NCBI GenBank assembly: GCA_947588005.1
Contig: CANPYE010000012.1
Coordinates: 1 to 36,536, forward strand
Direction: 5' to 3'
Length of the DNA: 36,536 nt
Source of the DNA: an uncultured Lachnospiraceae bacterium
GTDB lineage: Bacteria; Bacillota; Clostridia; Lachnospirales; Lachnospiraceae
A program made the position numbers and the translations under genes. This document shows positions 14,741 to 36,428 of the stretch, one piece after another. Under the pieces are notes generated by a model. The model was not told where the DNA came from. It did no database searches and saw only the letters and a list, made by a program, of their open reading frames with translations. How positions within the stretch are numbered: the stretch's first letter is position 1; each line of letters begins with the position of its first letter.

Positions 14741-14882
14741 GTGACAGAAAAGTCGTAGTATTGTATAATAGTTTGAGAAAACAGACGGCAGAAAAGGGTT
14801 ATAAACAGTGTGGATGAAGTAAAAATCTGCACATAATGTAAAAATAAGTTAATTGCTGTCAGGGGATTATCCAATCTATAAT
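14741..14882 (+). promoter_or_regulatory. Promoter region of the two-component operon, two candidate promoters and an activator-like site
   Basis: P1: GTGACA (14741-14746), 17 bp, TATAAT (14764-14769). P2: TTGCTG (14853-14858), 18 bp, TATAAT (14877-14882), 29 bp before the kinase start. Between them lies TGCACATAATGTAAAAA (14828-14844), whose AATGTAAAA core ends 9 bp before the P2 -35. The same motif lies at the same distance from the -35 of the binding-protein gene. Confidence 0.6.
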
Positions 14883-14910
14883 GAAAGTAGAATAATCGAA
14901 GGGAGACGGC

Positions 14911-16653
14911 ATGGGAAAAAGAAGACAGTCGCTTCAAAAGAAGCTGGCTTTGGTGTTCGTGGTGATTATCATTTGCATCATGCTGATCGCGCTGATGCTT
15001 TATAGCCGGACCGTAAATGTGATCCGGCGTGAGACTTATGAGAAAATGGAGTCGCAGGCCGAATATTATCAGGAGCTTTTGGAGACGGAGATCCAATATA
15101 GCCTGGATCTTCAGTTGGGATTCTTCGCTAACCGGAAACTGGTGTTTCTGGGGAGGCCGAATTCCGGACTGGATGCATATGAAGAGCGGGATTCGGTTCT
15201 GGATGTGCAGGAACGGATCTGGATCATTGCGCAGTCCAGCCGCCTTCTGCAGGACGGGGTGCTCTATATTCCCCATACGAATTATTATATCTCCTCATCA
15301 GATATCCGCCGTATGACGGCGCAGGACCTTAAGGAAATGGAGAATTATCTGGCCAACAGCGGAACTGATCTGCAGTACGATGGGGAAAACTTCTATTCCG
15401 TGCGTACCGGAGAGACCGGCAGTACGGTGTCAAAAGATCCCAATTTTGTGTTCGTAATTACATTTTCCAGCAAACAGATCGAGGAGAATCTGTCCCTGTT
15501 CAATACAGCGTCCAAGGGCGGCGCTTTCCTTTATGATGAGCAGGAGGATATCCTGTTGGAGAGCAGCGGAGGCTGTCCGGCACGGGATATCTGGATGCAG
15601 CTGTCCAGGCAGGAAGATGGGAGTTTCCAATCCGTACAGAGGGCCAGAGTAAACGGCGATGATTATCTGGTTCTCGTGGGAAGCCAGGGGCCTATGGGCG
15701 TCTTTGTCCAATATGTGGAGGAGGCTCCGCTGATGGCGGAGGTCAACCGGTTCTGGGGCGATACCTTATTTTTCCTGTTGGTAATGATCGTGCTTTCGGT
15801 TTTATTCATTCTCTATACCAGGCGGCTCGTTCACCGGCCGATCCAAAAACTGGTAGAGGCGTTTGGACGGTTGGAGGAGGGCAATCTGAGCGAACATATC
15901 TATCATAAAAACAACGACGAATTTGCATATATTTATCAATCCTTTAATGATATGGAAGACCGGTTGTCCAAGCTGATCGATGAGGTGTACGTCCAGAAGA
16001 ATCTGGTGCAAAAGGCCCAGCTGAAGCAGCTGCAGGCCCAGATCAATCCCCATTTTCTGTATAACAGCTTTTTCCTTCTGAGCCGCCGTATCAAACGGGG
16101 TGATGACGGAGGGGCGCAGGAACTGGCCGGACATTTGGGAGATTATTTTAAGTATTTGGCGAGAAATTCTTCTGATTATGTGCCACTGAGCCAGGAGACG
16201 GAGCATGCCCGGAGCTATGCGGCGATCCAACAGGCACGGTTTGTCAGCCGCGTGAGTGTGGAGTTCGGTCTGCTGCCCGAGAATTGGAGAAATGTGCTGG
16301 TCCCACGGCTGATCATTCAACCGCTTTTGGAGAACGCTTTTGGCCATGGGTTGGAGAATAAGGTCAGCGACGGCATCCTGCGCGTGGCATTCGCGGAGGA
16401 GGAGACAGAACTATATATAACTGTAGAGGATAACGGGGAGGAATGCGGCGATGAGGTTATCGCAGATATGCGCAGTTCGTTGGAACCGGAGAGTGGAAGG
16501 GAGATTACCGGAACTGTTAATATACATCGCAGGCTTCAGATGTATTTTCAGGGCAAAGGAGGACTTGCGATCAGCCGTAGCCAATTGGGAGGACTTGCGG
16601 TGACGATCCATATCCCGGGAGAGACTGAGAGAACGCAGGAGGTTTTCGCATGA
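14911..16653 (+). CDS. YesM-type (LytS/His_kinase family) sensor histidine kinase
   Basis: A 580-aa membrane sensor. TM1 is at about 12-31, a large extracellular sensor region at about 32-282, TM2 at about 284-303, then HAMP (about 304-358). The kinase domain has 'QINPHFLYNS', in which His381 is the expected phosphorylation site, N-box PLLENAFGHG (471-480, Asn475) and a C-terminal ATPase region with VEDNGEE. This is the sugar-responsive YesM group. GAAGGGAG precedes ATG 14911. It is followed 30 bp later by its AraC-type partner regulator and then by an ABC sugar transporter, so it probably senses the imported oligosaccharide or its bound receptor (inference). Confidence 0.93.
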   Translation: MGKRRQSLQKKLALVFVVIIICIMLIALMLYSRTVNVIRRETYEKMESQAEYYQELLETEIQYSLDLQLGFFANRKLVFLGRPNSGLDAYEERDSVLDVQERIWIIAQSSRLLQDGVLYIPHTNYYISSSDIRRMTAQDLKEMENYLANSGTDLQYDGENFYSVRTGETGSTVSKDPNFVFVITFSSKQIEENLSLFNTASKGGAFLYDEQEDILLESSGGCPARDIWMQLSRQEDGSFQSVQRARVNGDDYLVLVGSQGPMGVFVQYVEEAPLMAEVNRFWGDTLFFLLVMIVLSVLFILYTRRLVHRPIQKLVEAFGRLEEGNLSEHIYHKNNDEFAYIYQSFNDMEDRLSKLIDEVYVQKNLVQKAQLKQLQAQINPHFLYNSFFLLSRRIKRGDDGGAQELAGHLGDYFKYLARNSSDYVPLSQETEHARSYAAIQQARFVSRVSVEFGLLPENWRNVLVPRLIIQPLLENAFGHGLENKVSDGILRVAFAEEETELYITVEDNGEECGDEVIADMRSSLEPESGREITGTVNIHRRLQMYFQGKGGLAISRSQLGGLAVTIHIPGETERTQEVFA

Positions 16654-16683
16654 ACGAAACTGTAACTGGAGGAGGAGAGCGAT

Positions 16684-18330
16684 ATGAATCAGAATCTGCT
16701 GATCGTGGATGACGAGCAGGAAATCCTGACTTGGCTTAAGGAACTATTCAGCGACGAGTTTGATCAGGAGCTTGGGGTTTATACGGCCGGATCCGCACTT
16801 GAAGCGGTAAAGCTGCTTGCAAAGGTTCGTTTTGACGTAGTGCTTACGGATATCCGTATGCCGGGAATGAATGGGATCACATTATTCCGCCATATCAAGG
16901 AGAACTGGCCCCGCTGCAAGACAGTGTTTCTGACCGGTTACGGCAACTTCGAGGATATTTATCAGATCATCAATCATGAGGATGTCCGCTATGTTCTGAA
17001 AAGCGAGGACGACGATGTAATAGTCGGCGCGGTGCGGCAGATGTTGGAGCAAAGCCGCCGGGAATTGGAGGCAGAGAAGAGCCGGAAGGAGCAGGAAAGC
17101 TGGTTTGCCGAGGCGAAATACTGGCTCCGGCGGGAGTTGATGAACCAGCTGTGCTCCGGGGAGATTCCGGATCATCTCGACGAGCGGCTGACGGCGTTGG
17201 AGATTCCGCTCCGGGAGGAGAAGCCGGTTCTGCCGTTTCTACTGCGTATTGAAAGGGAATGGAAGGATGTCCGGTTCCAGGAGCGGATGCTTAAGGAAGA
17301 AGCGCTGAATCATATGCTGCGGGAGAATATCCCTTCGAAGCTCTGCTTTTACTGCCATATCGTGGATAACGATCAGGAACTGCTGCTTTTACAGCCGGCT
17401 AACGGGGAGCAGGACTGGCAGCTGATCTCCGTGATTGTTCAGGGGGCCGTCGAGTATGTGCAGGAGCAGTTCCGGAATCTTTATCATGACACCGTATCCG
17501 GTGTGCTTGCGGCGGAGCCGGTGAACGTGCGCGAGCTGGCGCCGTGCCTGCGGAAGCTTAAGACGGTTATGGTGGGTTATGTAGGAGGAGCACGGGAAGT
17601 GATTCTGCGCGCGGAGACGGTTTCTGATGGGGCTTCGCAGGCAGGAATTTTGGGAGATTCTGCCGGATGGGCGGCGTCTCTCAGGAATCTGATGGAACTG
17701 GGCAAGAAAAAAGAATACTTTGAGCTGTTGGGGCGGTATCTGCAGCGGATGACCGCAGGGGCCAGCCGCCACGACGCGGCGCTTTTGGAAATCTATTACA
17801 GCGTATCCATTTTTCTGCTGCAGTTCATTAATGAGAACCATCTGAATGAGGCGATGGCATTCCGTCTGGGGCTTTATAAGCTGACGATGGCGGAAGAACA
17901 TAAGGACTGGCTGGAAGCGGCGGCCTACCTGACTGAGGTGTCTGAGGCTGTGTTCTCTCTTCTGGCGGATAATGAGAGTTCTCTGGCGGATCACGCGCTC
18001 AAACGGGTAGTGTCCTACATAGAGGATCATCTGGATGAGGACCTGTCGCTGACGACGCTTGCTGATATTGGCGGATTTAACGCAAGCTACCTGTCCCGGC
18101 TCTTTAAGCAGGTGCAGAAGGAGACAGTCAGCGATTTTATTCTGCACAAAAGGATTAATCTGGCAAAACAGCTGCTGGCGGATCCGAGTGTGAAGATACA
18201 GGATGTGGCGGCCCGATCCGGTTATCTTTCTCCGCATTCCTTCACGCGGGCATTTCGCAATGAGGTCGGGATTTCGCCGACCGAGTACAGGGAGCTGAGG
18301 TTGGGAACATATTCGAAGAATATGTCATAA
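16684..18330 (+). CDS. YesN-type response regulator with AraC DNA-binding domain
   Basis: A 548-aa transcription factor. The receiver domain (about 1-122) has acidic pair DD (9-10), phospho-acceptor Asp56 in VVLTDIRMPGMNG, Thr84 and Lys106 (YVLKSEDD). A long variable linker with helical content (about 123-440) follows. The C-terminal AraC double HTH (about 445-545) has 'LSLTTLADIGGFNASYLSRL', 'IQDVAARSGYLSPHSFTRAF' and 'EVGISPTEYRE'. GGAGGAGGAG lies upstream of ATG 16684. It should be activated by the preceding kinase and drive the downstream transporter and glycosidase genes. The end of the gene contains a perfect 8-3-8 palindrome, ACATATTCGAAGAATATGT (18307-18325), of unknown meaning. Confidence 0.93.
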   Translation: MNQNLLIVDDEQEILTWLKELFSDEFDQELGVYTAGSALEAVKLLAKVRFDVVLTDIRMPGMNGITLFRHIKENWPRCKTVFLTGYGNFEDIYQIINHEDVRYVLKSEDDDVIVGAVRQMLEQSRRELEAEKSRKEQESWFAEAKYWLRRELMNQLCSGEIPDHLDERLTALEIPLREEKPVLPFLLRIEREWKDVRFQERMLKEEALNHMLRENIPSKLCFYCHIVDNDQELLLLQPANGEQDWQLISVIVQGAVEYVQEQFRNLYHDTVSGVLAAEPVNVRELAPCLRKLKTVMVGYVGGAREVILRAETVSDGASQAGILGDSAGWAASLRNLMELGKKKEYFELLGRYLQRMTAGASRHDAALLEIYYSVSIFLLQFINENHLNEAMAFRLGLYKLTMAEEHKDWLEAAAYLTEVSEAVFSLLADNESSLADHALKRVVSYIEDHLDEDLSLTTLADIGGFNASYLSRLFKQVQKETVSDFILHKRINLAKQLLADPSVKIQDVAARSGYLSPHSFTRAFRNEVGISPTEYRELRLGTYSKNMS

Positions 18331-18407
18331 GGGCAGGAGTGGGAACAGCGATCCCCGAGGGGAAATCGTTTTGAGACTGGCAGAGAGATGCAGAAAAAAG
18401 TAATATT

Positions 18408-18463
18408 GCGCATCAAATGTAAAATCTTGCCTCTTTATAACAGAAGATTCCGACTGTTATACT
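18408..18463 (+). promoter_or_regulatory. Candidate activated promoter of the sugar-binding protein gene
   Basis: A -10-like TATACT (18458-18463) has only a poor -35 (TTATAA at 18435-18440), as in activator-dependent promoters. GCGCATCAAATGTAAAA (18408-18424) ends 10 bp before that -35 and matches the site before the kinase operon. A weak hairpin followed by TTTT near 18349-18372 may partly end the upstream transcript. The leader 18464-18565 holds an AGGAGG ribosome site and no gene. Confidence 0.5.
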
Positions 18464-20477: not shown

Positions 20478-21422
20478 GTGAGAGAGAAGAGCGTTAAAGC
20501 GAAGAAAACCCAGCGCAGCAGCACGTTATTGTTTCACGCCATGCTGTTTATCCCGGTGGTGCTGCTGTTCATTTATAATTTCCTTCCGATTCCGGCCGGA
20601 ATCCTGATGGCGTTTCAGAATTTCCAGCCGGGCAAAGGGTTCTTCGGATCGAAGTTTGTAGGCTTTCATAATTTTAAGAGACTGTTTGTCCTGCCGGATA
20701 CCTGGCCGGCGCTGCGCAATACACTGATCATAGCGATTGAGAAGATTGTCTGCAACATTGTAATTCCGGTTTCCTTCGCCCTGCTTTTAAATGAGGTGAA
20801 GAACAGCCTGGTGAAGCGTACAGTTCAGACGGTTACCTATCTCCCGTACTTTTTATCGTGGGTGATCCTGAGCGGTATCCTGATCAAATTTCTGGCGCCG
20901 GGAAGTTCGGCTACCAGTCCGGGGCTTTTCAATACCATGCTGATGAGGATGCATATCATTGATGAACCGATTTATTTCCTGGGTTCTAACAGTACTTTTC
21001 GTCAGACTATGGTGATCAGCGATGTGTGGAAGAATTTCGGATACAACACCATTGTCTATCTGGCGGCCCTGACCGGCGTGGATCCGACGCTCTATGAGGC
21101 GGCGGCCGTAGACGGTGCGGGCAGATGGAAACAGACTCTGCATATCACGATTCCGGGTATCGCGCCGTTCATCGTACTGATGACGGTTCTGGCGATCGGC
21201 AATGTATTAAGCGCAGGTTTCGACCAGATCTTTAACCTTTATAATCCGGCGGTTTATGAGACCGGTGATGTCATCGACACGCTGGTCTACCGTCTTGGCC
21301 TTGAGAACAAGCAGTATTCGCTGTCGGCGACGGTAGGTCTGCTGAAATCCATCGTTTCCTGCATTCTGGTGCTTACAAGCTATAAGCTGGCCGACAAACT
21401 GGCCGGATACCGAGTATGGTAA
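20478..21422 (+). CDS. Sugar ABC transporter permease, LplB-type
   Basis: A 314-aa membrane protein with about six transmembrane helices. The first is at about 18-40, and the MetI-like core follows. The ATPase-contact EAA loop reads 'LYEAAAVDGAGRWKQTLHIT' (about 210-229). Start is GTG 20478 with GGAG 10 bp upstream. The nearby ATG 20471 runs into a stop after eight codons, so the GTG is right. It ends 12 bp before its partner permease. Together with the binding protein it forms an importer. No ATPase gene is present, so a shared MsmX-type ATPase encoded elsewhere is expected, as is usual for this family. Confidence 0.93.
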   Translation: MREKSVKAKKTQRSSTLLFHAMLFIPVVLLFIYNFLPIPAGILMAFQNFQPGKGFFGSKFVGFHNFKRLFVLPDTWPALRNTLIIAIEKIVCNIVIPVSFALLLNEVKNSLVKRTVQTVTYLPYFLSWVILSGILIKFLAPGSSATSPGLFNTMLMRMHIIDEPIYFLGSNSTFRQTMVISDVWKNFGYNTIVYLAALTGVDPTLYEAAAVDGAGRWKQTLHITIPGIAPFIVLMTVLAIGNVLSAGFDQIFNLYNPAVYETGDVIDTLVYRLGLENKQYSLSATVGLLKSIVSCILVLTSYKLADKLAGYRVW

Positions 21423-21434: not shown

Positions 21435-22325
21435 ATGAAGATAAAAAAATCGAAATCCAGGATCGCGTTTGAGATTGCAAATTATTGTATAATTGCGTTG
21501 CTGACGATCAGCTGCATCGTGCCGATCCTCAATATCCTTGCCTATTCGTTCAGTTCGTCCCAGGCGATTATTGAGAACCGGGTGAGTCTGTGGCCGGTGG
21601 AATTCACGCTGCAGGCATATAAATTCGTTTTGGATAACGCCAGATTCTGGGCTTCCCTGTTTGTAACATTTAAGCGGGTCATTATCGGTGTGCTGTTTAA
21701 TGTGGTTATGATCACTCTGGTGGCCTATCCGTTATCCAAATCCGAGGTCCGTTTTCCGGCCAGAAAATATTATGTAGCTTTCATGCTCTGCGTGATGCTG
21801 TTTCACGGCGGCATGATGCCCACCTATTTCATCGTGTCCAAAACGGGACTGATCGACACCCTTTGGGCCCTGATCCTGCCGGGGGCGGTACCGATCTTTA
21901 ATTGTATCGTACTGATGAATTTCTTTCGGGGTGTTCCGGAAGAGCTGGAGGAATCGGCGCTTTTGGACGGTGCAAACCAGTTTCACATCCTGACAAAGAT
22001 CTATCTGCCGATCTCCAAACCGTCCATTGCCACAGTGACGCTGTTTTCTCTGATCAATCACTGGAACTCCTGGTTTGACGGTTTGATCTACTCGAATCAT
22101 ACGCAGAATTATCCGCTGCAGTCGTATCTGCAGACGATCGTCGTATCGGCGGCCAAGTCCTTCGAGGACATGGATGTGGAGACGATGCTGAACCTGATGA
22201 ATGTAAACGAAACCAATATGCAGTCGGCGCAGATTTTTATCTCAATCATTCCGCTGATGCTGATCTATCCCTTCCTGCAGAAATACTTCACATCAGGACT
22301 GACCCTGGGAAGCGTAAAGGGATAA
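21435..22325 (+). CDS. Sugar ABC transporter permease, LplC/YtcP-type
   Basis: A 296-aa membrane protein with about six transmembrane helices, the first at about 15-35. The EAA loop reads 'EESALLDGANQFHILTKIYL' (about 174-193). The C-terminus 'YPFLQKYFTSGLTLGSVKG' is a well-known hallmark of this permease subgroup. AAGGAGG lies 7 bp before the ATG. It is partner of the preceding permease and follows it closely in the same operon. Its stop overlaps a possible start (TAATG) of the GH28-like gene. Confidence 0.94.
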   Translation: MKIKKSKSRIAFEIANYCIIALLTISCIVPILNILAYSFSSSQAIIENRVSLWPVEFTLQAYKFVLDNARFWASLFVTFKRVIIGVLFNVVMITLVAYPLSKSEVRFPARKYYVAFMLCVMLFHGGMMPTYFIVSKTGLIDTLWALILPGAVPIFNCIVLMNFFRGVPEELEESALLDGANQFHILTKIYLPISKPSIATVTLFSLINHWNSWFDGLIYSNHTQNYPLQSYLQTIVVSAAKSFEDMDVETMLNLMNVNETNMQSAQIFISIIPLMLIYPFLQKYFTSGLTLGSVKG

Positions 22326-22381
22326 TGCAGGATAACCGGACAACGGGCGGACGGTGTCATTCTGCCCGGAAAGGAATAGGA

Positions 22382-25300
22382 ATGTACAGAGACAGAAACG
22401 GGAGGGATGGTATTGCCATCCTTCCGCAGGTTGAGGGAAAAAGCGGACAGTCTGCTTCCCGCGTTGTGATGAACCGGAAAATGTATCCGCTTTATGTGGG
22501 CGGAAGCGCGGCGGAAGGCTTCCGTGACAGTGCGGAGAAGGGGAGCAGCTTTTTGCTGTCGGTGAAGGTATATTCGGAAACGTACAGCGCGAGTGATCTG
22601 ATGTGGAAGATCGACGACAACAGTATAGTGGATTTTGACGATAGGGACTGTGGAGGATATGTTTCCCTGAATCCGGAGGAATGTGCTCCGGAAACCGAGT
22701 CGCGAGAAACATGCGCTGCAACAGCTGTATCCCGCCGTGTCCGGGCTCTGCGCACCGGCATCACGGCTGTCCGGGCATCGCTGCCGGACGGCAGCTTTGC
22801 GGAATGTATTTTTACAGTCATTGATTTCTTTACACGTCTTACGGCGGCGGATGTGGAACTGAATACCGGCGAACTGTATCTGAAAGCCGGGGAGGCGGCA
22901 AGACTGTTCCCGATTCTCTATCCGAAAGACATCTTCGGGAATGGACGGCTGGAAACAGCGGTGGTCTGGCACAGCTGCGACGTAAATGTGGCGAAGGTGG
23001 AGCGGGGGATCGTTACGGCAGTGGCGGACGGAGAGACAGATATCGTGGTCTGCACGGCCGATGTGGAGCGTCAGGCAATATGTCATGTCGTGGTAGGGCC
23101 GAAGGCTGGCAGCGACAAAGCAGCGGACGGCGGGATTCCCGATACGGACAGCTATGGTTTCCCGGCGCCGCAGATGATTGGCGTAGGAGAACGGCTGGAG
23201 CTTCGTCTCCCGGCGGGCGCCGGGAAAAGGATCTGCTGGGTCAGTGAAAACCGGTATGTGGCGGATGTGGATAAGGACGGAATTGTTACGGGTCTGTCCG
23301 CGTCGCTGGCACAGCGGGTGGATGCATCGGGTCTGGAAGTTATGGAGATCCCGGAACCGGTCTGGATCTATGCCACCGATATGCTGGGCGGACGCACCGT
23401 GAAATATTCACTGTATGTGCGCCCAGCAGGTGTGCCGGTTATGGGGATGTCTGTTTCGCCGGAGAATACGGTGCTTTCTGCCGGCAGCAGCCGGATCCTG
23501 ACTGCGGCAGTCAGTCCTTCCGCGCCGCGGGAGGAGACAGTGTTGTGGGAAAGCAGTGATGAAACGGTTCTGAAGATATATCCGGTGAAGGATTCGGTCA
23601 GCGGTACAGCGCAGGCCAGAATAATTGCCGTACGGTGCGGGGCGGCGGTGGTTACCGCCAGGTTCGGCGGTATCGCAGAGGCAGTCTGCCATGTGCGTGT
23701 GATGCGGGAAGGAAAGAAACTGGAAGCGTTTTCTCTGGACGACAGGGAGATATCCGTAGATCAGGTATACCGATTTGCCCCGGCGTTGTCCGAGGAGGCA
23801 CAGAATCGGAAGCTTTACTGGGTCACATCGGACTATGAAACGGCGACAATGGACAGGGAAGGAAATGTGCAGGGTTACCGCCCCGGTGTCTGCCAGATCT
23901 ATGCCATTGCTGACGATTCATTGACGGAAGAACAGAAGGCATGGCTGAAGACGCTGGGTACAAACACGAAGAATCCAGAGAAGGATGAGAAGTTCAGGGA
24001 AATCCTGTCAGATGCTGTTTACGGTGTCTGTGAACTCCGGGTAAAGGAGGAAAGCGTCTGCCTGCGCAATCTTCATGTAGTGGAAGAATCCGTTACGGAT
24101 CATTCGGTTCTGCTGCTCTGGAACCGGGCGTCGCTCCTTGACGCTAAGGAATTGCGAGAATATGATATTTATCAGAACGGAAACCGGATCGGGACAACCG
24201 CGAAGCTGGGATACCGGGCAGAGAGTCTGAATCCGGAGCAGGAGTATCATTTTGCGGTAGAGGCGATTGGGAATAAAGGGGAAATTCTGGCATATGCGGA
24301 AACTGCCGTGACAACGAAACCATTGTCAGCGATCCGAAGCGTATTGGAATACGGCGCTGTGGGCGACGGAAGACGGCTGGAGACGATTTTTATACAGAAA
24401 GCCATCGACGACTGTCCGAAGGGAGGAACCGTTCTTCTGCCGGCGGGGCATATCTTCATCAGCGGCGCGCTGTTTTTAAAAAGCGATATGACGTTCCGGG
24501 TGGACGGTATCCTGATGGGGAGTATCGATCCGAAGGATTATCCCCGGGTCATTTCGCGTTGGGAGGGCTGGCGGAAGCTGAACTGTCCTGCCGCGGTATG
24601 GGATAATACCTCTGCAAAGGTTCCGGACAGTCACTGTCCCCATGCCTCTCTTCTGAATGCGGGATGCTACGATGAGGGCTTGCCGGGAACCACCGGGCCG
24701 TATCATGTGGAGAACCTGGTGATTTGCGGAAACGGCCAGATCAACGCCAATGGATTTACCCTGGCCTATAATGAAGGACCCAATATCAATATCGGCAAGT
24801 TCGTCGGCATCGACACCTATCCGGTGCAGGATGCCAGCCTTCGAGGGTCTGTGCTGAGGATCCACAATGGAAGGAATATTTACGTGAAAGAGGTTCAGAT
24901 CGCCTACGCCCCGTTCTGGACGGTTCATACGATCTATTGCGACCGGATCACGTTCGACGGGCTTGAAGTGGTGTCTATGGGTGACGGCGATGGCGGCAAG
25001 GGCAGCGATCTGTTCTATTGCGGTCATGTCTTCAACGGCGACGGCATTGATCCGGAACACTGTACGAACGTGAACATCTTTGATGTATGGTTCACGACCG
25101 GCGACGACCCAGTAGCTATCAAGTCCGGCCGCAATCGGGAAGGGAATGAGCTGGATAAGCCCAATGCCTATATCCGGGTAACGGACTGCGTATCCAGATG
25201 GTCTTTGGGCGGCTTCGGTATCGGAAGCGAGAGCGCCAGTGGTTCCCACGATCTGATATTTCAGAATCTGGATATCCGGGACATCGTGCTGAACGGAATC

Positions 25301-25651
25301 TGGATCAAGACCTGCAGGCCGCGCGGCGGCGTTACCGAATTTATTCAGGTACGCGATGTGACGGCACGAAACTGCGATTGCCCGGTATGGATCTTTAATA
25401 ATTATTCCAGTACCAGCGTCCATGCGAATCCTGCGGCCGATCCGCCGGTAGTTCGCCGTATGGTATTTGAGAATGTGCGCGGGAGCGCTGATAATAAGCG
25501 GGGCTTTGTAGTCGATGGCGTGGAGGACTGTCCGGTGTCGGATGTTCATTTCCGCGGCGCGGACAATGGCGGGAGGCCCAATGTGATACGGTATGGCGAG
25601 AATGTGACCGGACTCGATACAGAGAACGAGAAAGTGAGGGAGACGAATTGA
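22382..25651 (+). CDS. GH28-like (polygalacturonase fold) enzyme with N-terminal Ig-like and FnIII domains
   Basis: A 1089-aa protein from ATG 22382, chosen for its GGAAAGG site 7 bp upstream; ATG 22325 overlapping the permease stop would add 19 residues. In order: two bacterial Ig-like (Big_2) domains (nt about 22850-23100 and 23430-23710), a third probable one (about 23710-24060), an FnIII domain (about 24060-24330) and a right-handed beta-helix GH28 domain (about 24330-25610) starting with EYGAVGDG. GH28 motifs are altered: NGDGIDP for NTDGIDP (Asp887 kept), TGDDPVAIKSG kept (Asp908, Asp909), but GHG reads GFG (Phe945) and RIK reads WIK (Trp974). No signal peptide is seen, so it is probably cytoplasmic. 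GH28 enzymes cleave galacturonans or rhamnogalacturonan. The exact substrate is uncertain. Confidence 0.85.
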   Translation: MYRDRNGRDGIAILPQVEGKSGQSASRVVMNRKMYPLYVGGSAAEGFRDSAEKGSSFLLSVKVYSETYSASDLMWKIDDNSIVDFDDRDCGGYVSLNPEECAPETESRETCAATAVSRRVRALRTGITAVRASLPDGSFAECIFTVIDFFTRLTAADVELNTGELYLKAGEAARLFPILYPKDIFGNGRLETAVVWHSCDVNVAKVERGIVTAVADGETDIVVCTADVERQAICHVVVGPKAGSDKAADGGIPDTDSYGFPAPQMIGVGERLELRLPAGAGKRICWVSENRYVADVDKDGIVTGLSASLAQRVDASGLEVMEIPEPVWIYATDMLGGRTVKYSLYVRPAGVPVMGMSVSPENTVLSAGSSRILTAAVSPSAPREETVLWESSDETVLKIYPVKDSVSGTAQARIIAVRCGAAVVTARFGGIAEAVCHVRVMREGKKLEAFSLDDREISVDQVYRFAPALSEEAQNRKLYWVTSDYETATMDREGNVQGYRPGVCQIYAIADDSLTEEQKAWLKTLGTNTKNPEKDEKFREILSDAVYGVCELRVKEESVCLRNLHVVEESVTDHSVLLLWNRASLLDAKELREYDIYQNGNRIGTTAKLGYRAESLNPEQEYHFAVEAIGNKGEILAYAETAVTTKPLSAIRSVLEYGAVGDGRRLETIFIQKAIDDCPKGGTVLLPAGHIFISGALFLKSDMTFRVDGILMGSIDPKDYPRVISRWEGWRKLNCPAAVWDNTSAKVPDSHCPHASLLNAGCYDEGLPGTTGPYHVENLVICGNGQINANGFTLAYNEGPNINIGKFVGIDTYPVQDASLRGSVLRIHNGRNIYVKEVQIAYAPFWTVHTIYCDRITFDGLEVVSMGDGDGGKGSDLFYCGHVFNGDGIDPEHCTNVNIFDVWFTTGDDPVAIKSGRNREGNELDKPNAYIRVTDCVSRWSLGGFGIGSESASGSHDLIFQNLDIRDIVLNGIWIKTCRPRGGVTEFIQVRDVTARNCDCPVWIFNNYSSTSVHANPAADPPVVRRMVFENVRGSADNKRGFVVDGVEDCPVSDVHFRGADNGGRPNVIRYGENVTGLDTENEKVRETN

Positions 25652-26703
25652 AAGCAGAATGCAGGCCGAAATCTGAAACCGGGCAGGAAAATAGCCAAGC
25701 CGGTTCGTTCGTGCATGGGGCAATTGAAGATTTCACACAGTGGCTGGACACGGACGGACATGTGATCAACGCAAGCGATGGCGGGATCATTTACGTGGAA
25801 GGCAGATATCACTGGTATGGTCAGGCGCTGCGTCCTCTTCCTTCCGGCGCGCAGGGACGCGGGGGCCAAAGTACAACTGCGGGTGTGGTTATGTATGAAT
25901 CTGAGGATCTGTATCACTGGAGGTACGAGGGCGTGATCCTGGCATGTTCGGAGACTTCGGACGGGCCGCTTCGCGCGCCGATGCGGTTTGAACGGCCGAA
26001 AATCCTTTACAATGAGAAAACCGGGCAGTATGTGCTCTGGTGTCATTATGTAGGATATCCGGGCGATCATGGCTTCATTCCGGGTACAGGAGAAGCCGGC
26101 GTGGCAGTCTGCGACCGGGTCAACGGAAGCTATACATGGCTGGGAAGTCTGCGGCCGGTAGATGGATCCGGCATGGTTCGGGACTGCACAGTCTTTCAGG
26201 ATCGTGACGGCAGCGCGTATTTTATTTTCGACCGTCAGAGCCTTAGTGAGCCGGAGAACCGCTGCCTTTATATCGTGAAGCTGTCGGACGACTATCAGAC
26301 GATGACCGGCGAATACCGCAGAATCGAACCGGCATATCGGCGGGAAGCCGCGGCGATCGTGTATCACGACGGATATTATTATATGATCACATCAGGACTG
26401 ACTTCGTGGAGATTCAATCAGGCGAACTATTACCGGACGAAGGAGCTTATGGGGGAATGGGAGGATATGGGTGATCCCTGCGTAGGAGACGATACGAAGA
26501 CTACGTTTCACTCCCAGAGCACATTCATTTTCAAGGTAGAAGGCAGCGCAGACCATTACATCCATATGGCGGAGCGGCACAATACGGAGAATTTCCTGAA
26601 TTGTTCCTATATCTGGCTTCCGGTGGAATTCGGCGCGGATCATACGCTGCGTCTCAGATACCGGAAGGAATGGAAACTGGAGGACGGTTGGAGCAGGACA
26701 TAG
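25648..26703 (+). CDS. GH43-like five-bladed beta-propeller glycosidase
   Basis: A 351-aa protein starting at TTG 25648, overlapping the GH28 stop (TTGA), with GTGAGGGAG upstream. Blades with the GH43 pattern are visible: 'DTDGHVINASDGGIIYVEGR' then YHWYG (about 35-60), FERPKILYNEKTGQYVLW (about 112-130), RDCTVFQDRDGSAYFIF (about 177-193) and 'AAAIVYHDGYYYMITSGLT' (about 235-253). The 'INA..GGI' start resembles GH43 subgroups acting on galactans, some of which lack the usual Asp base; that is family knowledge, not shown here. No signal peptide is present. Likely role: trimming galactosyl or arabinosyl side chains of imported pectic fragments in the cytoplasm. Confidence 0.8.
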   Translation: MKAECRPKSETGQENSQAGSFVHGAIEDFTQWLDTDGHVINASDGGIIYVEGRYHWYGQALRPLPSGAQGRGGQSTTAGVVMYESEDLYHWRYEGVILACSETSDGPLRAPMRFERPKILYNEKTGQYVLWCHYVGYPGDHGFIPGTGEAGVAVCDRVNGSYTWLGSLRPVDGSGMVRDCTVFQDRDGSAYFIFDRQSLSEPENRCLYIVKLSDDYQTMTGEYRRIEPAYRREAAAIVYHDGYYYMITSGLTSWRFNQANYYRTKELMGEWEDMGDPCVGDDTKTTFHSQSTFIFKVEGSADHYIHMAERHNTENFLNCSYIWLPVEFGADHTLRLRYRKEWKLEDGWSRT

Positions 26704-26713: not shown

Positions 26714-29700
26714 ATGCGGAAGATGGATAAGATTTCGGAACTAAATCGGATATTTGAAAATCCTTCGGCGGTGCACAGGGGCATCCCTTTCTGGTCCTGG
26801 AACTGCAAAGTGACTGAAGAAATGATCGACTGGCAGTTGGACTGCTTTCGGGGCATGGGCTTCGGCGGCGTGGTCATTCATCCGCGGGTCGGACTGGATG
26901 TCGTGTACATGGGGGATGAATATCTGCGATTGACGAAATACGCGGTGGAGAAATGCAGGGAGAAGGGATTGCTATGCTGGCTGTACGATGACGACCGGTT
27001 CCCTTCCGGCGCGGCCGGCGGGATCGTGACAAAGGACTGGCGGATGCGGGGGAGATATCTGCTGCTGACGGAGAGGCATGGCGAGGGGCTGAAATCGCCG
27101 CTGGAAGAAGACAGAACGGGAATTATGCAGCACGGCCGGCAAATGGAAAAAGGGAAAGATGAACCGAAATTGTCGGAAACCGACGGAGTTTGTGCGTATC
27201 TGCTGCCCGAATATTGCCGGAATGCAGAAGAATTTGAAGAGGCGGCTTCCGGAACCCCTATCGGCTATTTTGCCGCCGCCTACGCAATCGATCTGCAGGA
27301 CGGGTTTCTGGCGGGCTACCGCCGTTTAACGACAGACGAGGAAATCCATGCAGCGCTTCAGCGGGGAGAACGGGTCCGGTTCGCTTATGTGCGGCTTCTG
27401 GAGGAGGAGCGGTGGTTCGAGGGCGAGGCGTATCTTGACACCATGAATCCGGCTGCGGTTCGGGCTTTTCTTGAAAGTACCCATGAGAAATACTATGAGC
27501 TGCTGGAGGATGAATTCGGCGGCAGTGTGCCGGCCATTTTCACCGATGAGCCGCGGATGGCGCCGCGGAAGAAGCGGCCGTTTAAGCTGAGCGCCGCTCT
27601 TTCCGATGAGGATATCGTCGTGCCCTACACGGAATACTTTCGGGCGCGGATGATGGAAAAGTACGGATCTGATCCGTTGGGTCAGCTGCCGGAGTATGTC
27701 TGGGAACTGCCGGACGGCGAAAAAAGCGCGTTCCGATATCGGTATCAGGACATGCTGGCGGAGTGCTTTGCCGGTGCGTTCATGGATCAGATCAGCGACT
27801 GGTGCGCGGAGCATGGAATCATGATGACCGGGCATGTACTCTGCGAGGACAGCCTGCAGGCGCAGACGTGGGCTTTGGGCGACTGTATGCGCTGCTATCG
27901 GGAGATGGATATGCCGGGCGTGGATGTGTTGGTGGATTACAGGCAGTTCGTGACGGTCAAGCAGGCGGTCAGCGTGGCGAAGCAGAGAGGATTAGATGGG
28001 GGCAGCAGGAAAGGGCGGAATGCGCTGGCAGGTAGTGAAAAGCAGAATGTACTGGCCGGTGAAAAACGGCGGAGTGGCTGCGAAGGCGTGGTCAGCGAAC
28101 TGTACGGTGTGACCGGGTGGGATTGTGATTTTAAGACGTATAAGCTGCAGGGAGACTGGCAGGCGGCGTTGGGCGTAACCGTGCGGGTGCCGCATCTGGC
28201 CTGGATGTCCATGGAGGGCGAGGCAAAGCGCGACTGGCCTGCATCCATTTTCTATCAGTCGCCGTGGTATACGCAGTTTCCGATGATTGAGGACTATTTT
28301 GCGCGGCTTCATACGGTTCTTACCCGGGGAAAGGCAGTGACCCGGGTGGCGGTGATCCATCCGGTAGAATCCGCATGGCTTCTGATGGGGCCAAATGACC
28401 AGACAGAGGACGCGCTTTCGAAGATGAGCCGTAGCTTCGATGAACTGGTGCGGTGGCTGCTGCTGGGATGTGTGGATTTTGATTTTGTGTCGGAGTCGCT
28501 GTTGGAAGAATACGCGTCGGAATCGCATTCCAAATGTAGAAAATGTGTGAAACATGCGGAACAGAACCGGATGAAGAAGGAAACGCATTGTGCCGTGTTC
28601 TCGGTGGGCCAGATGGCATATGAGGTTATTTTGGTACCCGGATTTCTGACAATCCGGGGGACGACGCTTGACCGGCTGGAACAGTTCGCGGCGAAGGGAG
28701 GTACCGTGCTGTTTGTTGGGACGGCGCCGGCGTATGTGGACGGCGTTCGGTCAGATCGGGCGGTGCATTTTGCGGAGAAATGTGCGGAAACAATGTATGC
28801 AGAAGAAGCCGCAGCCGAAATCACGCAGGTTCGGGGAATTCTTCCATGGGAAAAGAAAGTGATTCTGAACGCGTTGGAACCGTGGCGTGATGTGGAGATT
28901 CGCGGCGCAGACGGTACCCGCTCAGATAATCTGTTCTATCAGCTGCGGCAAGACGAGGGCTTTGGCTGGCTGTTCCTTTGTCATGTATATCCGCGTCCGG
29001 ATGCGACGGATCAGGCAGAACCGTATCGGATCCGACTGCGAGGAGAATATCATCCGGTTATATACGATGCAATGACTGGGGAATGCGCCGCGCAGGTATC
29101 GGATTCCGTGACAGTCTGTAAGAATGGGGACAATGTGTTCACGGAGTTTCCATGGACTTGTTATGCGCAGGACAGTTTGCTTCTGCGGTTGGATCCGGTG
29201 GCAGACCGTGAGGATCTGGGCCCGGAAAACAATGAAAGCTACGGTATGGGAACAGGCATAAGCTGTGCCCCGGCAGTACGTAATATCAGCCGACGGCCAG
29301 ACTTTGAGACTGTACTTGCCCTTCGCAAACCTGATACATGTGTGCGATCGGAGCCCAATATGCTTCTCTTGGACTATGCCAGATATCAGCTGGACGGCGG
29401 CCCCATTTCCGAAAAAATGGAGATCCTCCGTCTGGATAACCGGATCCGCAGTCAACTGGGACTGGATCCGCGCAGAGAGGATATGGAACAGCCATGGTTC
29501 ATGAAGGAGACAGAACGCCATGCGGTAACGCTATACTATGATTTCCGATCTGAATCAGATACATCAACGGCCCTCGGCATCGAACGCGCGGAAAACTGCC
29601 GGATCTGGCTGAATGAAGAAGAGGTGACGATTGCAGATTCCATGAAAGGATACAGCCGGCTGTGTGGAAAGCAGGTACTTCGCAGCTTTGCGGGAGATAC

Positions 29701-30310
29701 AGACAGTCAGGGACCCGCAGACTGGTACGTGGATCAGAGCATACGCGTGATTCCTCTTCCTGATATTCGTCCCGGGGAGAATTGGCTGAAGCTGGAGGTG
29801 CGCTTCAATCAGAAATCGAACCTGGAGAATCTTTACCTCTTGGGTGATTTCGACGTGAAACTGTGTGGTGGTCAGCCAATTGTATGTCCAAGGAAAAGCG
29901 AACAGACGCTCGGCGATATCACCGACCAGGGGATGCCGTTTTACACCGGCAATCTGGACTATCAGTTTCGGTTCCGGACAGAAGAAGCGGGAGAGTATGC
30001 GGTCCAGATCCGCCGTTTTGCGGCCCCGCTTCTGGGCATACAGATCGATGGCAGGGATGCCGGACAGCTCGCGTTTGCCCCACACCGGCTGGAACTGGGA
30101 TATCTGAACGCCGGGGAACATGAGCTGATGGTACGGCTTTACGGGAACCGGTTCAACGGCTTCGGTCATCTTCACAACGCTGACCGGAATTTCGAATGGA
30201 TCGGGCCCGCTGCCTACCGCACGGAAGGGGATCGGTGGACGGACAGCTATCTGCTTCGGCTGGCAGGGCTATTCTCAGAGGCGGAGATTCAGCGAGTTGG
30301 GAGTCGGTAG
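26714..30310 (+). CDS. GH106-like alpha-L-rhamnosidase family protein
   Basis: A 1198-aa protein without signal peptide, from ATG 26714 after GAGAGAGGAAA; ATG 26723 is an alternative. The N-terminal catalytic region has GH106-type stretches: RGIPFWSWNCKVTEEMIDWQ (about 22-41), MGFGGVVIHPRVGLDVVYM, YDDDRFPSGAAGGIVTKDW (about 92-110), TDEPRMAPRKK and 'VSELYGVTGWDCDFKTYKLQ'. The C-terminus has beta-sandwich domains ('LYYDFRSESD...', 'LKLEVRFNQKSNLENLYLLG'). GH106 enzymes remove alpha-L-rhamnose from rhamnogalacturonan-type glycans. Several insertions break up otherwise conserved parts (residues about 115-155, 425-457, 600-625). It is last of the three glycosidase genes behind the transporter. 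Confidence 0.85.
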   Translation: MRKMDKISELNRIFENPSAVHRGIPFWSWNCKVTEEMIDWQLDCFRGMGFGGVVIHPRVGLDVVYMGDEYLRLTKYAVEKCREKGLLCWLYDDDRFPSGAAGGIVTKDWRMRGRYLLLTERHGEGLKSPLEEDRTGIMQHGRQMEKGKDEPKLSETDGVCAYLLPEYCRNAEEFEEAASGTPIGYFAAAYAIDLQDGFLAGYRRLTTDEEIHAALQRGERVRFAYVRLLEEERWFEGEAYLDTMNPAAVRAFLESTHEKYYELLEDEFGGSVPAIFTDEPRMAPRKKRPFKLSAALSDEDIVVPYTEYFRARMMEKYGSDPLGQLPEYVWELPDGEKSAFRYRYQDMLAECFAGAFMDQISDWCAEHGIMMTGHVLCEDSLQAQTWALGDCMRCYREMDMPGVDVLVDYRQFVTVKQAVSVAKQRGLDGGSRKGRNALAGSEKQNVLAGEKRRSGCEGVVSELYGVTGWDCDFKTYKLQGDWQAALGVTVRVPHLAWMSMEGEAKRDWPASIFYQSPWYTQFPMIEDYFARLHTVLTRGKAVTRVAVIHPVESAWLLMGPNDQTEDALSKMSRSFDELVRWLLLGCVDFDFVSESLLEEYASESHSKCRKCVKHAEQNRMKKETHCAVFSVGQMAYEVILVPGFLTIRGTTLDRLEQFAAKGGTVLFVGTAPAYVDGVRSDRAVHFAEKCAETMYAEEAAAEITQVRGILPWEKKVILNALEPWRDVEIRGADGTRSDNLFYQLRQDEGFGWLFLCHVYPRPDATDQAEPYRIRLRGEYHPVIYDAMTGECAAQVSDSVTVCKNGDNVFTEFPWTCYAQDSLLLRLDPVADREDLGPENNESYGMGTGISCAPAVRNISRRPDFETVLALRKPDTCVRSEPNMLLLDYARYQLDGGPISEKMEILRLDNRIRSQLGLDPRREDMEQPWFMKETERHAVTLYYDFRSESDTSTALGIERAENCRIWLNEEEVTIADSMKGYSRLCGKQVLRSFAGDTDSQGPADWYVDQSIRVIPLPDIRPGENWLKLEVRFNQKSNLENLYLLGDFDVKLCGGQPIVCPRKSEQTLGDITDQGMPFYTGNLDYQFRFRTEEAGEYAVQIRRFAAPLLGIQIDGRDAGQLAFAPHRLELGYLNAGEHELMVRLYGNRFNGFGHLHNADRNFEWIGPAAYRTEGDRWTDSYLLRLAGLFSEAEIQRVGSR

Positions 30311-34686: not shown

Positions 34687-34728
34687 GGGGTACCTCCTTA
34701 GTGTTTTATCTGCGTTCGGCGATGTGTT

Positions 34729-34873
34729 AAAACGAGCGGTTGTTGTTTGCTTTGGGTAACATCGAAAACAGTTGGTTGTTATCAAAGTAAAGCCACGTCA
34801 AAACGGTTAGCTGTTATCCCGCTTTGGAACCGTACTAAAACTATCGGTGGATGTCCGGCTCAAAGCCATACCG
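34729..34873. repeat. Degenerate tandem array, four AAAAC-headed units with a 36-37 bp period
   Basis: AAAAC occurs at 34729, 34765, 34801 and 34838, each followed by a related sequence. The first three share AAAAC(g/a)(g/a)(t/g)(t/c)(g/a)G(t/c)TGTT(a/g)T(c/t), often with CTTTG further on. The units fill most of the gap between the LacI stop and the YesL start. They differ too much for a CRISPR array. They could be regulator sites on the same helix face or a decayed repeat. Confidence 0.5.
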
Positions 34874-34883
34874 CCCGTATTTT

Positions 34884-35954
34884 TTACCCTTCCGTCGACT
34901 CCCTATAGATCAGTTCCGTCTCCGTGTGCATGATCCGGTAGTTCAGTTCCGGCTCCCGGATGCGGGACAGCAGAAGCTGGACCGCCGCGAAGCCCATGAT
35001 CTGACTGTGAATGTGGATCGTAGTCAGCGTCGGCGTCATGATCCGGGATTCCGGGGAATCGTCAAAGCCGCAGAGCCAGACGTCCTTCGGGACGGACCGG
35101 CCCAGACGCTTAAGGACAGTGACGACGTCGATGGCGACGAAGTCGTTGGCGCAGAGAAAGACGTCTGGCATATGGTCAAGTCCGCCCAGCTGTTCGGTCA
35201 GATAGGCGCGGTAGGCGTCCCGGTCCAAATGGCTTAAGCCTTCCTGTGTCCTTGTCAGGCAGAAATGTTCGTCAATGGGCAGCCCCAGCGTGAACATGGC
35301 GCCTCGGAACGCCATATAGCGCTCGTAGAAGGACTGGCAGTGCAGGTATTCGCCGATGAAGCCGATCCTTGTCCGGCCGCGCCGCGCCATCTCGCTGATA
35401 AAGCGGTAGATCTCGGTCTGGTTGTCCATGTACAGCCGGTCCGCCTCCAGCAGGCGGTCGAAGCCGTCGGCGGGAGTGTCGATGAAGAGGGTGGGGATTC
35501 CCTGACCGCAGATCCTATGGCTGTATTCATGGTCAAAGATCTCCACGCACACGATGCCGGCGGTCCGGTCCGGATTAAAGGATGCCGGCATCCGTCCCGC
35601 GGCCTGATCTTCGTAATAGACCCGGTGCAGGGTCAGGCTGTAGCCAGCCTGGGTCAGTTCGCGTTGAAATTTGTCCAGGATCACGGAAGCGATATGGGAA
35701 CCGCCTAACGCCGAGCCGGTCAGAAGGGCGATCTCCCGCTTGTCGTCGGGACCCGGAAAGGAAGACGGCGTCCTGACAGGATCCGTGAGGGCCATGTAGG
35801 AAAACTGCTTATAGCCCATCTCCTGCGCCTTCTTAAGGACTTTCTCCCTGGTCGCGTCGGCCAGGATGCCGGTATTGTTGATCGCCTTGGAAACGGTATT
35901 GCGCGATACGCCCAGCGCGTCCGCAATGTCCTGGATCGTGACTCGTTCTGCCAT
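34884..35954 (-). CDS. LacI family transcriptional regulator
   Basis: A 356-aa repressor-type protein. The N-terminal HTH and hinge (about 5-55) have 'TIQDIADALGVSRNTVSKAI' and 'NNTGILADATREKVLKKAQE'. The C-terminal sugar-binding domain (about 70-345) has 'DRTAGIVCVEIFDHEYSH', GRTRIGFIGEYLH, MPDVFLCANDFVAIDVV and WLCGFDDSPESR. It probably binds a sugar or sugar phosphate. CAGGAGGGGG lies before the ATG. It is transcribed away from a 550-bp AT-rich regulatory region toward yesL and may control both that operon and the divergent gene starting at 36508. Confidence 0.93.
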   Translation of the reverse strand: MAERVTIQDIADALGVSRNTVSKAINNTGILADATREKVLKKAQEMGYKQFSYMALTDPVRTPSSFPGPDDKREIALLTGSALGGSHIASVILDKFQRELTQAGYSLTLHRVYYEDQAAGRMPASFNPDRTAGIVCVEIFDHEYSHRICGQGIPTLFIDTPADGFDRLLEADRLYMDNQTEIYRFISEMARRGRTRIGFIGEYLHCQSFYERYMAFRGAMFTLGLPIDEHFCLTRTQEGLSHLDRDAYRAYLTEQLGGLDHMPDVFLCANDFVAIDVVTVLKRLGRSVPKDVWLCGFDDSPESRIMTPTLTTIHIHSQIMGFAAVQLLLSRIREPELNYRIMHTETELIYRESTEG

Positions 35955-36004
35955 GTAACCCCCTCCTGAGAAATTTCCTTAAAATATAATGTACTGCCTG
36001 ATTT

Positions 36005-36034
36005 GCGTCAGTATGCAGGAAATAGCGCCGGCGG
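36005..36034 (+). repeat. Dispersed short repeat, copy 2 (shared with 20412-20455)
   Basis: TGCGTCAGTATG (36005-36016), 7 to 10 nt, then GCGCCGGCGGCGC, matching the copy between the binding-protein and permease genes. Here AGCGCC and GGCGCT form a small hairpin. It lies directly before the third hairpin-repeat pair. Confidence 0.55.
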
Positions 36035-36045
36035 CGCTTTCTATG

Positions 36046-36123
36046 TTTCCATGCAGGCAGAGTGCCGATGACGTTCTGCCTGTATTTCCATGCAGGCAGA
36101 GTGCCGGTGATGTTCTGCTTGCA
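36046..36123. repeat. REP-like paired hairpin repeat, locus 3 (units 36046-36084 and 36085-36123)
   Basis: Two adjacent TTTCCATGCAGGCAGAGTGC-headed units. The stem CAGGCAGA pairs with TCTGCCTG and continues with G-U type pairs, with loops CCGATGA and CCGGTGA. It is the same family as at 4222-4298 and 12840-12918. Stem bases differ between loci while pairing is kept. Confidence 0.8.
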
Positions 36124-36129
36124 TCACGT

Positions 36130-36428
36130 CAACTTGTGCATATGCCTAACTCATTGTTTCTATTATAATGCACAAATCAAAATGTGTCAAATGTAAAAAT
36201 GTAAATATTTTAGCATAATTGTATGTGCAATATGCAAAATTCAGACAACGACAGGCGGCTCAGACTGTAAAAGATGTGCATAGTGCGCGGTCAGGGTGGA
36301 AAACACCCAATTCGACCGAAAAATAATTTGTGCAAATGTTAAAATCTGTATTGACTAAATGTAAAAACGGTGGTATAAATGATTTACACAAATCCGAATG
36401 ATATTTTTACAAATGCACAAATCACAAA
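36130..36428. promoter_or_regulatory. AT-rich control region with clustered TGTGCA / AATGTAAAA sites and a consensus-like promoter
   Basis: TGTGCA or its complement occurs six times (starts about 36135, 36169, 36222, 36274, 36330, 36414). AATGTAAAA or close variants occur at 36190, 36335, 36358 and, inverted, 36405-36413. AATGCACAAATCA is repeated directly at 36167 and 36412. A promoter TTGACT (36351-36356), 17 bp, TATAAA (36374-36379) would read into the gene at 36508. The region 35955-36507 holds no ORF that I can support. Confidence 0.6.

What the first reader, a model, noticed from the sequence alone, without database searches (positions are those of the whole stretch)
14828..36428. Shared regulatory motif TGYRCA + AATGTAAAA before the kinase operon, the sugar-binding gene and the 36-kb promoter
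AATGTAAAA preceded by a TGYRCA/GCRCAT-like half occurs at 14828-14844 and 18408-18424. In both places it ends 9-10 bp before the -35, the position of a class II activator site. The core recurs exactly at 36190 and 36358, with variants at 36335 and 36405 (inverted). All copies I noticed are intergenic. My rough estimate is well below one chance occurrence of the 9-mer in the window. The simplest reading is that it is the binding site of the YesN-like AraC regulator encoded at 16684-18330, which would then autoregulate, drive the importer and possibly control a second sugar locus at the window's right edge.
Basis: partly seen in the sequence, partly recalled or inferred. Interest (0 to 1): 0.75.

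Follow-up and report, generated by a model that had tools for sequence, protein, structure and literature searches.

The report
Activator site for a sugar-uptake operon
A bacterium carries the same two-part DNA signal before its sugar-sensor genes and before the matching sugar importer, very probably the docking site of the sensor's own regulator; this is a well-conserved but fairly ordinary kind of switch, and the look-alike copies at the window's right edge most likely belong to something else.

Summary
TGYRCA-N0-3-AATGTAAAA has two hits in the 3.05-Mb assembly (81% complete), at 14828-14843 and 18407-18424, and none for the reversed pattern. All 8 orthologous sensor-regulator-importer loci found carry the site: before the binding-protein gene in 7, before the first permease gene in the eighth. 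A matrix built without the window ranks the two window sites first and second in it. The motif needs redefining: a tandem direct repeat, period 19 bp, each unit GTAAAA-N3-TGYRYAT, with the downstream GTAAAA 38-39 bp before the -10 box in 13 of 14 promoters. The likely binder is the YesN-like response regulator 16684-18330, activating its own operon and the importer; binding is untested. The right-edge copies are probably not its sites: both persist in six sister genomes with no detectable orthologue of the regulator, lie in or against LacI-region promoters, and score far lower. Five of 13 more distant relatives, two of them Paenibacillus, show the same spacing, a possible wider grammar.

The parts
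   Evidence: 19-bp offset test; table
14838..14853 (+). downstream repeat unit of the kinase-operon promoter: GTAAAA-ATA-AGTTAAT, about -51 to -36
   Evidence: aligned together with the -10 in G021
14877..14882 (+). -10 hexamer TATAAT of the kinase operon, 39 bp from GTAAAA
14911..16653 (+). sensor histidine kinase, YesM-like (Pfam His_kinase + HAMP)
16684..18330 (+). response regulator, YesN-like (receiver + AraC-type HTH_18); proposed binder of the sites
18400..18415 (+). upstream repeat unit of the importer promoter: GTAATA-TTG-CGCATCA (TGCGCA lies 2 bp off the register of the kinase copy)
18419..18434 (+). downstream repeat unit of the importer promoter: GTAAAA-TCT-TGCCTCT
18458..18463 (+). 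-10 hexamer TATACT of the importer operon, 39 bp from GTAAAA
18566..20350 (+). probable solute-binding lipoprotein of a sugar ABC importer (no Pfam or NCBIfam hit; 32% identical to an annotated Paenibacillus extracellular solute-binding protein)
20478..21422 (+). ABC permease 1 (BPD_transp_1)
21435..22325 (+). ABC permease 2 (BPD_transp_1)
22325..25651 (+). GH28 (polygalacturonase-like) protein with bacterial Ig-like domains; probable member of the regulated operon
25648..26703 (+). GH43 glycoside hydrolase; probable member of the regulated operon
26714..30310 (+). 1198-aa protein without Pfam or PDB match; homologues in five of the eight orthologous loci (L033, L034, L036, L038, L040), while the held stretches of L035 and L037 end before that position

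Best explanation
Each of the two promoters carries one binding site for a dimer of an AraC-type response regulator: two direct-repeat units 19 bp apart, each with box 1 (GTAAAA) and box 2 (TGYRYAT) about one helical turn apart, fitting the two helix-turn-helix motifs of one AraC-type domain. The downstream unit covers about -51 to -36, where it can contact the polymerase at a weak -35 (class II activation). When the YesM-like kinase senses its ligand, it phosphorylates the YesN-like regulator encoded next to it; the regulator occupies the sites and switches on the importer operon (binding protein, two permeases, GH28, GH43, a large unknown protein) and, in some lineages including this one, its own kinase-regulator operon. 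Shown here: the sites, their conservation, repeat period, spacing to the -10 and co-occurrence with the gene cluster. Inferred: that this regulator is the binder, that the effect is activation, that phosphorylation controls it, the operon's extent, and that the substrate is a plant-wall (GH28/GH43-type) oligosaccharide.
For: L040 has it before the kinase, a GH28 gene and the binding-protein gene. Leave-one-genome-out matrices rank the site first in every locus tested (ranks 1-3 for the three sites of L040); in the window they give 24.6 and 24.3 bits, next best 7.9, best of 60 dinucleotide-shuffled windows 14.1. Over 10 sites the unit score at other offsets peaks at -19 (mean -0.2 bits; next offset -9.2). 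GTAAAA-to--10 distance is 38 or 39 in 13 of 14 promoters (11 of 12 if the near-identical L034-L036 count once). In 17 sequences (16 loci and the window; 277 exact TATAAT) GTAAAA stands 38 bp (5 times) or 39 bp (4 times) before TATAAT and at none of the 18 other distances from 30 to 49 (these counts include the known sites). All 14 best -35 hexamers match TTGACA in at most 4 of 6, as expected for activator-dependent promoters. In sister genome G021 a kinase 97% identical over its first 360 residues has the same site and promoter, while blastn finds no match further upstream. In six carrier genomes searched whole (L033, L034, L037, L038, L040, G192) the 8 strong hits all lie in this cluster and the next are at E 0.1 or worse.
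Against: No binding or expression data. Half-site conservation is uneven: the upstream unit begins GTAA in 10 of 14 sites, GTCA in one (L038) and TAAA in the three near-identical L034-L036. The kinase promoter has the site only in the window, G021, L033 and L040; none was seen before the kinase in L034-L038, and in G192 the kinase lies inside the operon, so autoregulation is lineage-specific. The L033 kinase site lies 49 bp from a TATGAT and gets only 6.5 bits from the covariance model, though the matrix ranks it second there. The out-of-sample covariance model gives the window sites 14.2 and 13.9 bits, against 25-35 for the sites it was trained on; only one of the two was reported genome-wide, at E 0.19, and the own genome had no hit at E 0.01. 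In G021 the regulator gene was not found; the kinase runs off a contig end.
Confidence: 0.85

Rival explanations
1. One reading: one YesN regulon that includes the two left sites and the right-edge promoter at 36.1-36.4 kb.
For: Two exact AATGTAAAA copies plus variants there and TGTGCA-AATGTTAAA at 36329. The half matrix ranks 36193 second in the window, 19.1 bits, above the 18419 half-site at 15.3. Full site 7.9 bits, local-shuffle p 0.03; third and last genome hit of the covariance model, E 5.9. A weak GATATT (4 of 6) lies 39 bp after 36361.
Against: Full-site scores 7.9, 0.2 and 0.1 bits versus 24.6 and 24.3. No hexamer with 5 or more matches to TATAAT 37-40 bp downstream of 36193, 36338, 36361 or the two inverted copies. 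The 36358 copy lies in the 17-bp spacer of TTGACT-TATAAA and the 36190 copy abuts the perfect TTGACA-17-TATAAT promoter on the minus strand. Both exact copies are kept in G001, G002, G011, G012, G014 and G018, none of which matches the regulator at E 1e-25 (the assemblies are 83-98% complete).
Confidence: 0.05
2. The conserved block is bound by another, unidentified activator that travels with the same gene cluster, not by the YesN-like regulator.
For: No binding data; the link is by synteny and fit to the AraC-type two-box architecture.
Against: The kinase-regulator pair is adjacent in 8 of 8 loci and the tandem two-box layout fits an AraC-type HTH pair. I identified no other regulator gene inside the clusters, but most of their other ORFs were not annotated.
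Confidence: 0.08
3. AT-rich upstream promoter (UP) elements or shared ancestry of promoters, with no specific regulator.
For: GTAAAA is A+T-rich; downstream units are 53-79% A+T.
Against: A fixed GT at box 1, a TGY-type box 2, a 19-bp period and a 38-39 bp lock to the -10 across genomes whose regulators are 41-54% identical to the window's; three promoters before different genes in one locus (L040) share it.
Confidence: 0.02

Closest known systems
CuaDSR three-component system of Ruminiclostridium cellulolyticum (PMC5663094; abstract and passages seen)
   Same: Kinase and AraC/XylS-type response regulator, then binding protein and two permeases in a separate transcription unit; the regulator was shown in E. 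coli to activate a reporter fused to the region before the binding-protein gene cuaA.
   Different: Its kinase-regulator unit is constitutive, whereas the window's kinase promoter carries the site too; the passages seen give no motif, so the sites could not be compared.
AraC-type two-component regulators of Caldicellulosiruptor bescii, such as BxgRS (PMC8579813; section 19 read, other passages seen)
   Same: Predicted tandem-repeat sites upstream of sugar-importer promoters; for three of five such regulators the position relative to mapped starts suggests activation.
   Different: That study searched for 21- or 32-bp periodicity; here the period is 19 bp. The motif letters are in figures and a supplement not seen.
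XydS/R of Clostridium cellulolyticum (PMC3572039; passages seen)
   Same: AraC-type response regulator whose effector domain binds DNA upstream of two regulated loci; shared direct and inverted repeats near the -35 are listed in a table not seen.
   Different: Regulates hemicellulase genes; expression of the kinase-regulator genes was reported not to depend on XydR.
YesMN (TCS09) of Streptococcus pneumoniae (PMC11034029; passages seen)
   Same: Regulator of the same name; yesMN reported as positively autoregulated.
   Different: No clear repeat motif was identified for YesN there; a conserved AATTC was reported.

Membership tests
YesM/YesN-type two-component system | Sensor kinase with HAMP and His_kinase (PF06580) domains | tested here: met
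   both above Pfam cut-offs
YesM/YesN-type two-component system | Response regulator with N-terminal receiver and C-terminal AraC-type HTH_18 | tested here: met
   Asp56 in TDI-MPG identical in the Cellulosilyticum orthologue; that it is the phosphorylated residue is inferred
YesM/YesN-type two-component system | Gene neighbourhood with a sugar ABC importer (binding protein + two permeases) | tested here: met
YesM/YesN-type two-component system | Curated NCBIfam equivalog of a named regulator | tested here: not met
   none of the 25 shown (of 97) regulator matches reaches its cut-off; the name YesN here means architecture, not orthology to B. subtilis YesN
AraC/XylS-type class II activator site | Two direct-repeat half-sites | tested here: met
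   offset test (peak at -19); table
AraC/XylS-type class II activator site | Promoter-proximal half-site overlapping the -35 at fixed distance from the -10 | tested here: met
   38-39 bp in 13 of 14 promoters; promoters are predicted, not mapped
AraC/XylS-type class II activator site | Weak -35 hexamer | tested here: met
   at most 4 of 6 matches in 14 of 14
AraC/XylS-type class II activator site | Specific DNA binding and activation by the regulator | not testable with these tools
   needs footprint and reporter assay
Right-edge copies as members of the same regulon | Full tandem site at 38-39 bp from a -10, present only with the regulator | tested here: not met

The most novel reading that the evidence does not exclude
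A clade of YesN-type response regulators reaching from the window's order (which includes Cellulosilyticum) to Paenibacillus shares a rigid promoter grammar: box 1 GT[A/C]AA locked 38-39 bp upstream of the -10 of the adjacent sugar-importer gene, with box 2 carrying the pathway specificity. If so, the importer promoter and regulator site of any member could be read straight from sequence.
Probability: 0.45. Interest if true: 0.6.

Novelty: new member of a known kind. Interest (0 to 1): 0.4.

Why it matters
It gives an operator with defined half-sites, period and promoter spacing for a YesN-like, AraC-type response regulator, a family that I recall as abundant in gut and soil Firmicutes; in the pneumococcal study seen no clear repeat was found for YesN. 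The 19-bp period falls outside the 21/32-bp search used in the closest comparative study. If the 38-39 bp rule extends to relatives, many predicted sugar importers could be tied to their sensors by sequence alone. It also corrects a tempting over-reading: similar AT-rich 9-mers at the right edge most likely belong to a different regulator's promoter.

Tried and rejected
Bare AATGTAAAA as the regulon motif: rejected, 41 genome hits against 48 for the reversed pattern. First genome-contig scan with the regulator alone found no relative; repeated with an alignment of the binding protein, 8 loci.

Regulon beyond this locus in the own genome: not found. The covariance model gives 3 hits at E up to 10: 18398 (E 0.19), C115:1280 (E 1.2) and the right-edge 36181 (E 5.9); the kinase site was not reported there although it scores 13.9 bits locally. 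Scan of 26 genus genomes: 19 have a hit at E up to 1; two fall below E 0.01, G021 (the kinase orthologue) and G011 (21.6 bits; no homologue of 11 window proteins within its 3-kb locus), so single hits near E 1e-3 can be noise. Scan of 392 order genomes: 14 at E up to 0.01, only G192 (E 5.6e-6) strong; the other 13 (0.0019-0.0088) exceed the roughly 4 expected from the rough E-values; tblastn with the window's proteins gave no match in their 13 loci, and I went no further.

Wider grammar. Relatives outside the orthologous set, looked at before an importer gene: L029, L031, L119 and L121 have GT[A/C]AA 39 bp, and L114 GTAAAA 38 bp, before TATAAT; L030, L115, L117, L118, L120, L123, L124 (CTAAAA instead, read by eye) and L125 do not: 5 of 13. 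L029 and L031 came from a matrix scan, and the C at the third position was allowed after seeing L119, so these are partly post hoc; L121 and L114 were tested with the GTAAAA rule already fixed. Background: 1 of 108 TATAAT on 300 kb of one Paenibacillus plasmid. The tail P of 2e-6 was for 4 of 11, before L114 and the proper promoter of L115 were examined (one search had tested only its permease). Because of L114 I raised the probability of the novel reading from 0.40 to 0.45. L116 was fetched but shows no importer homologue and was not tested. L122, L126, L127 and the LacI-linked importer of L123 were scanned as extra promoters without a kinase-regulator pair beside them; none had the site; they are not among the 13. 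The kinase promoters of L120, L121 and L125 had none either.

Promoter prediction tool: listed the importer -10 but not the kinase promoter at 14853-14882; its geometry was read from the sequence and from orthologues. PDB search for the 1198-aa protein: none. Paper searches were seen as listings only; no title or abstract opening pointed to this motif. PMC7755780 was not opened. I do not claim that the motif is absent from print.
Full report
OBSERVATION. AATGTAAAA occurs at 14835, 18416, 36190 and 36358, all intergenic. The composite TGYRCA-N0-3-AATGTAAAA has two hits in the 3,049,735-base assembly (81% complete), both in the window (14828-14843 and 18407-18424), and none for the reversed control. 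A one-mismatch version stands at 36329. The 9-mer alone is not special genome-wide: 41 hits against 48 reversed. So the exact pairing, not the 9-mer, is unusual, and it exists only at the two left sites.

GENES. 14911-16653 is a HAMP/His_kinase sensor, 16684-18330 a receiver plus AraC-type HTH regulator, 20478-21422 and 21435-22325 ABC permeases, 22325-25651 a GH28 protein with Ig-like domains, 25648-26703 a GH43 enzyme. 18566-20350 has no Pfam or NCBIfam match but starts like a lipoprotein and is 32% identical to an annotated Paenibacillus extracellular solute-binding protein.

ORTHOLOGUES. Among 26 genus genomes only the window's own has the regulator at E 1e-70. Of 392 order genomes three match at E 1e-75: the own genome, G192 (48% identity) and G213 (34%). 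All 8 have kinase, regulator and binding protein together.

THE SITE. Read from the intergenic DNA, GTAAAA followed by N3 and a TGYRYAT-like box stands before the binding-protein gene in 7 of the 8 loci. In the eighth (Cellulosilyticum) the binding-protein gene follows the regulator almost without a gap, and the site, found by a matrix made from the others, lies before permease 1. In L040 it also precedes the kinase and a GH28 gene. The downstream GTAAAA begins 38 or 39 bp before the -10 in 13 of 14 promoters; the exception is the kinase promoter of L033, at 49 bp. In a count over 17 sequences that include the known sites, GTAAAA stood 38 (5) or 39 (4) bp before exact TATAAT and at no other distance from 30 to 49.

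TANDEM REPEAT. Scoring the unit at offsets from -40 to +40 gave one clear peak besides zero, at -19 (mean -0.2 bits; next -9.2). Box by box the window's kinase site reads GTAAAA-ATC-TGCACAT-AAT-GTAAAA-ATA-AGTTAAT, and that of sister genome G021 reads GTAAAA-AGT-TGCACAG-AAT-GTAAAA-AAA-TGTTAAT. The downstream unit covers about -51 to -36, counting the -10 hexamer as -12 to -7. The upstream unit is the weaker one: GTAA in 10 of 14, GTCA in one, TAAA in the near-identical L034-L036.

SIGNIFICANCE. A matrix built without any window sequence ranks 14838 and 18419 first and second in the window (24.6 and 24.3 bits; next 7.9; best of 60 dinucleotide shuffles 14.1). Leaving each genome out in turn, the known site is first in its locus, and first to third in L040. 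In L033 the second-best place is its kinase promoter (6406). In whole-genome scans of six carriers the 8 strong hits lie in this cluster; the next are at E 0.1 or worse. The regulon is thus likely local. Against this clarity, the covariance model trained on the other genomes gives the window sites only 14.2 and 13.9 bits.

SISTER GENOME. G021 has a kinase 97% identical over residues 1-360, cut by a contig end. Its site, spacer and -10 align with the window's; blastn finds no match further upstream, and 115 extra bases lie between -10 and start codon. Selection on the site-promoter block is the simplest reading (inference). The regulator was not found in that assembly.

RIGHT EDGE. The contig ends at 36536. 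34884-35954 is a LacI-family regulator; the gene that starts at 36508 is cut off, and from its continuation in sister genomes I read it by eye as an importer permease. The 36190 copy abuts a perfect TTGACA-17-TATAAT promoter on the minus strand; the 36358 copy lies in the spacer of TTGACT-17-TATAAA. Of 17 LacI loci with an N-terminus (the own one included), those of G001, G002, G011, G012, G014 and G018 keep both exact copies and G021 one; the first six have no match to the regulator even at E 1e-25 (assemblies 83-98% complete). The stretch 36130-36440 holds 6 of the window's 20 TGTGCA/TGCACA words and an inverted pair of 20-nt arms around the forward promoter. I read it as LacI operators (inference).

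MECHANISM. Best reading, 0.85: the sites bind the adjacent response regulator, which activates the importer in the carriers found and its own operon in some. Shown: sites, repeat, spacing, co-occurrence, weak -35s. Inferred: binding, activation, phosphorylation control, substrate. Precedents: CuaR of R. cellulolyticum activates a reporter fused to the region before its binding-protein gene in E. coli (PMC5663094), and three of five AraC-type two-component regulators of C. bescii have predicted tandem-repeat sites upstream of mapped promoters (PMC8579813), searched there with 21- or 32-bp periods.

WIDER GRAMMAR. Five of 13 relatives outside the orthologous set, three clostridial (L029, L031, L114) and two Paenibacillus (L119, L121), have GT[A/C]AA 38 or 39 bp before TATAAT at the importer's first gene; the other eight do not. 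Four of these regulators are about 27-32% identical to the window's and that of L114 24%. Background on a Paenibacillus plasmid is 1 of 108 TATAAT. Partly post hoc, so offered as the novel case only.

VERDICT. A real, conserved candidate activator site; a new member of a known kind. The right-edge part of the finding is not supported.

Noticed in passing
window 36130-36440: Divergent LacI/permease promoter region packed with TGTGCA/TGCACA words (6 in 311 bp), palindrome ATTTGTGCAAAT at 36326-36337, near-palindrome ATTTACACAAAT at 36382-36393 over the predicted start, and 20-nt inverted arms; largely conserved in the closest genus genomes. Looks like multiple LacI operators.
   Followed up: partly
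L049, L050, L051 (upstream of 62-67% identical LacI orthologues): AATGTAAAA recurs 3-4 times in the same divergent region, so the 9-mer is itself a recurrent element of that LacI-linked promoter.
   Followed up: partly
window 36041-36118: Two tandem copies of a 39-bp repeat (90% identical) between lacI and its predicted promoter.
   Followed up: no
window 26714-30310: 1198-aa protein with no Pfam or PDB match whose homologues travel with the importer cluster in five of the eight orthologous loci; a candidate unrecognised enzyme family.
   Followed up: partly
G021:C89 (L086/L113) versus window: The 97%-identical kinase and its promoter sit next to different upstream DNA in two genomes of one genus, and the regulator was not detected in the other genus genomes: the cluster may be mobile.
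   Followed up: no
L040:8143: In the roe-deer Lachnospiraceae locus the site also precedes a GH28 gene placed between regulator and binding protein.
   Followed up: partly
L114 (G003:C9), about 10971: GTAAAA repeated 20 bp apart, the second copy 38 bp before TATAAT, before the importer gene next to a regulator only 24% identical to the window's.
   Followed up: partly
L124 (Paenibacillus plasmid) before the permease at 30297: CTAAAA stands 38 bp before TATAAT upstream of another importer linked to a kinase and response regulator; may be a variant box 1 of a different subclade.
   Followed up: no
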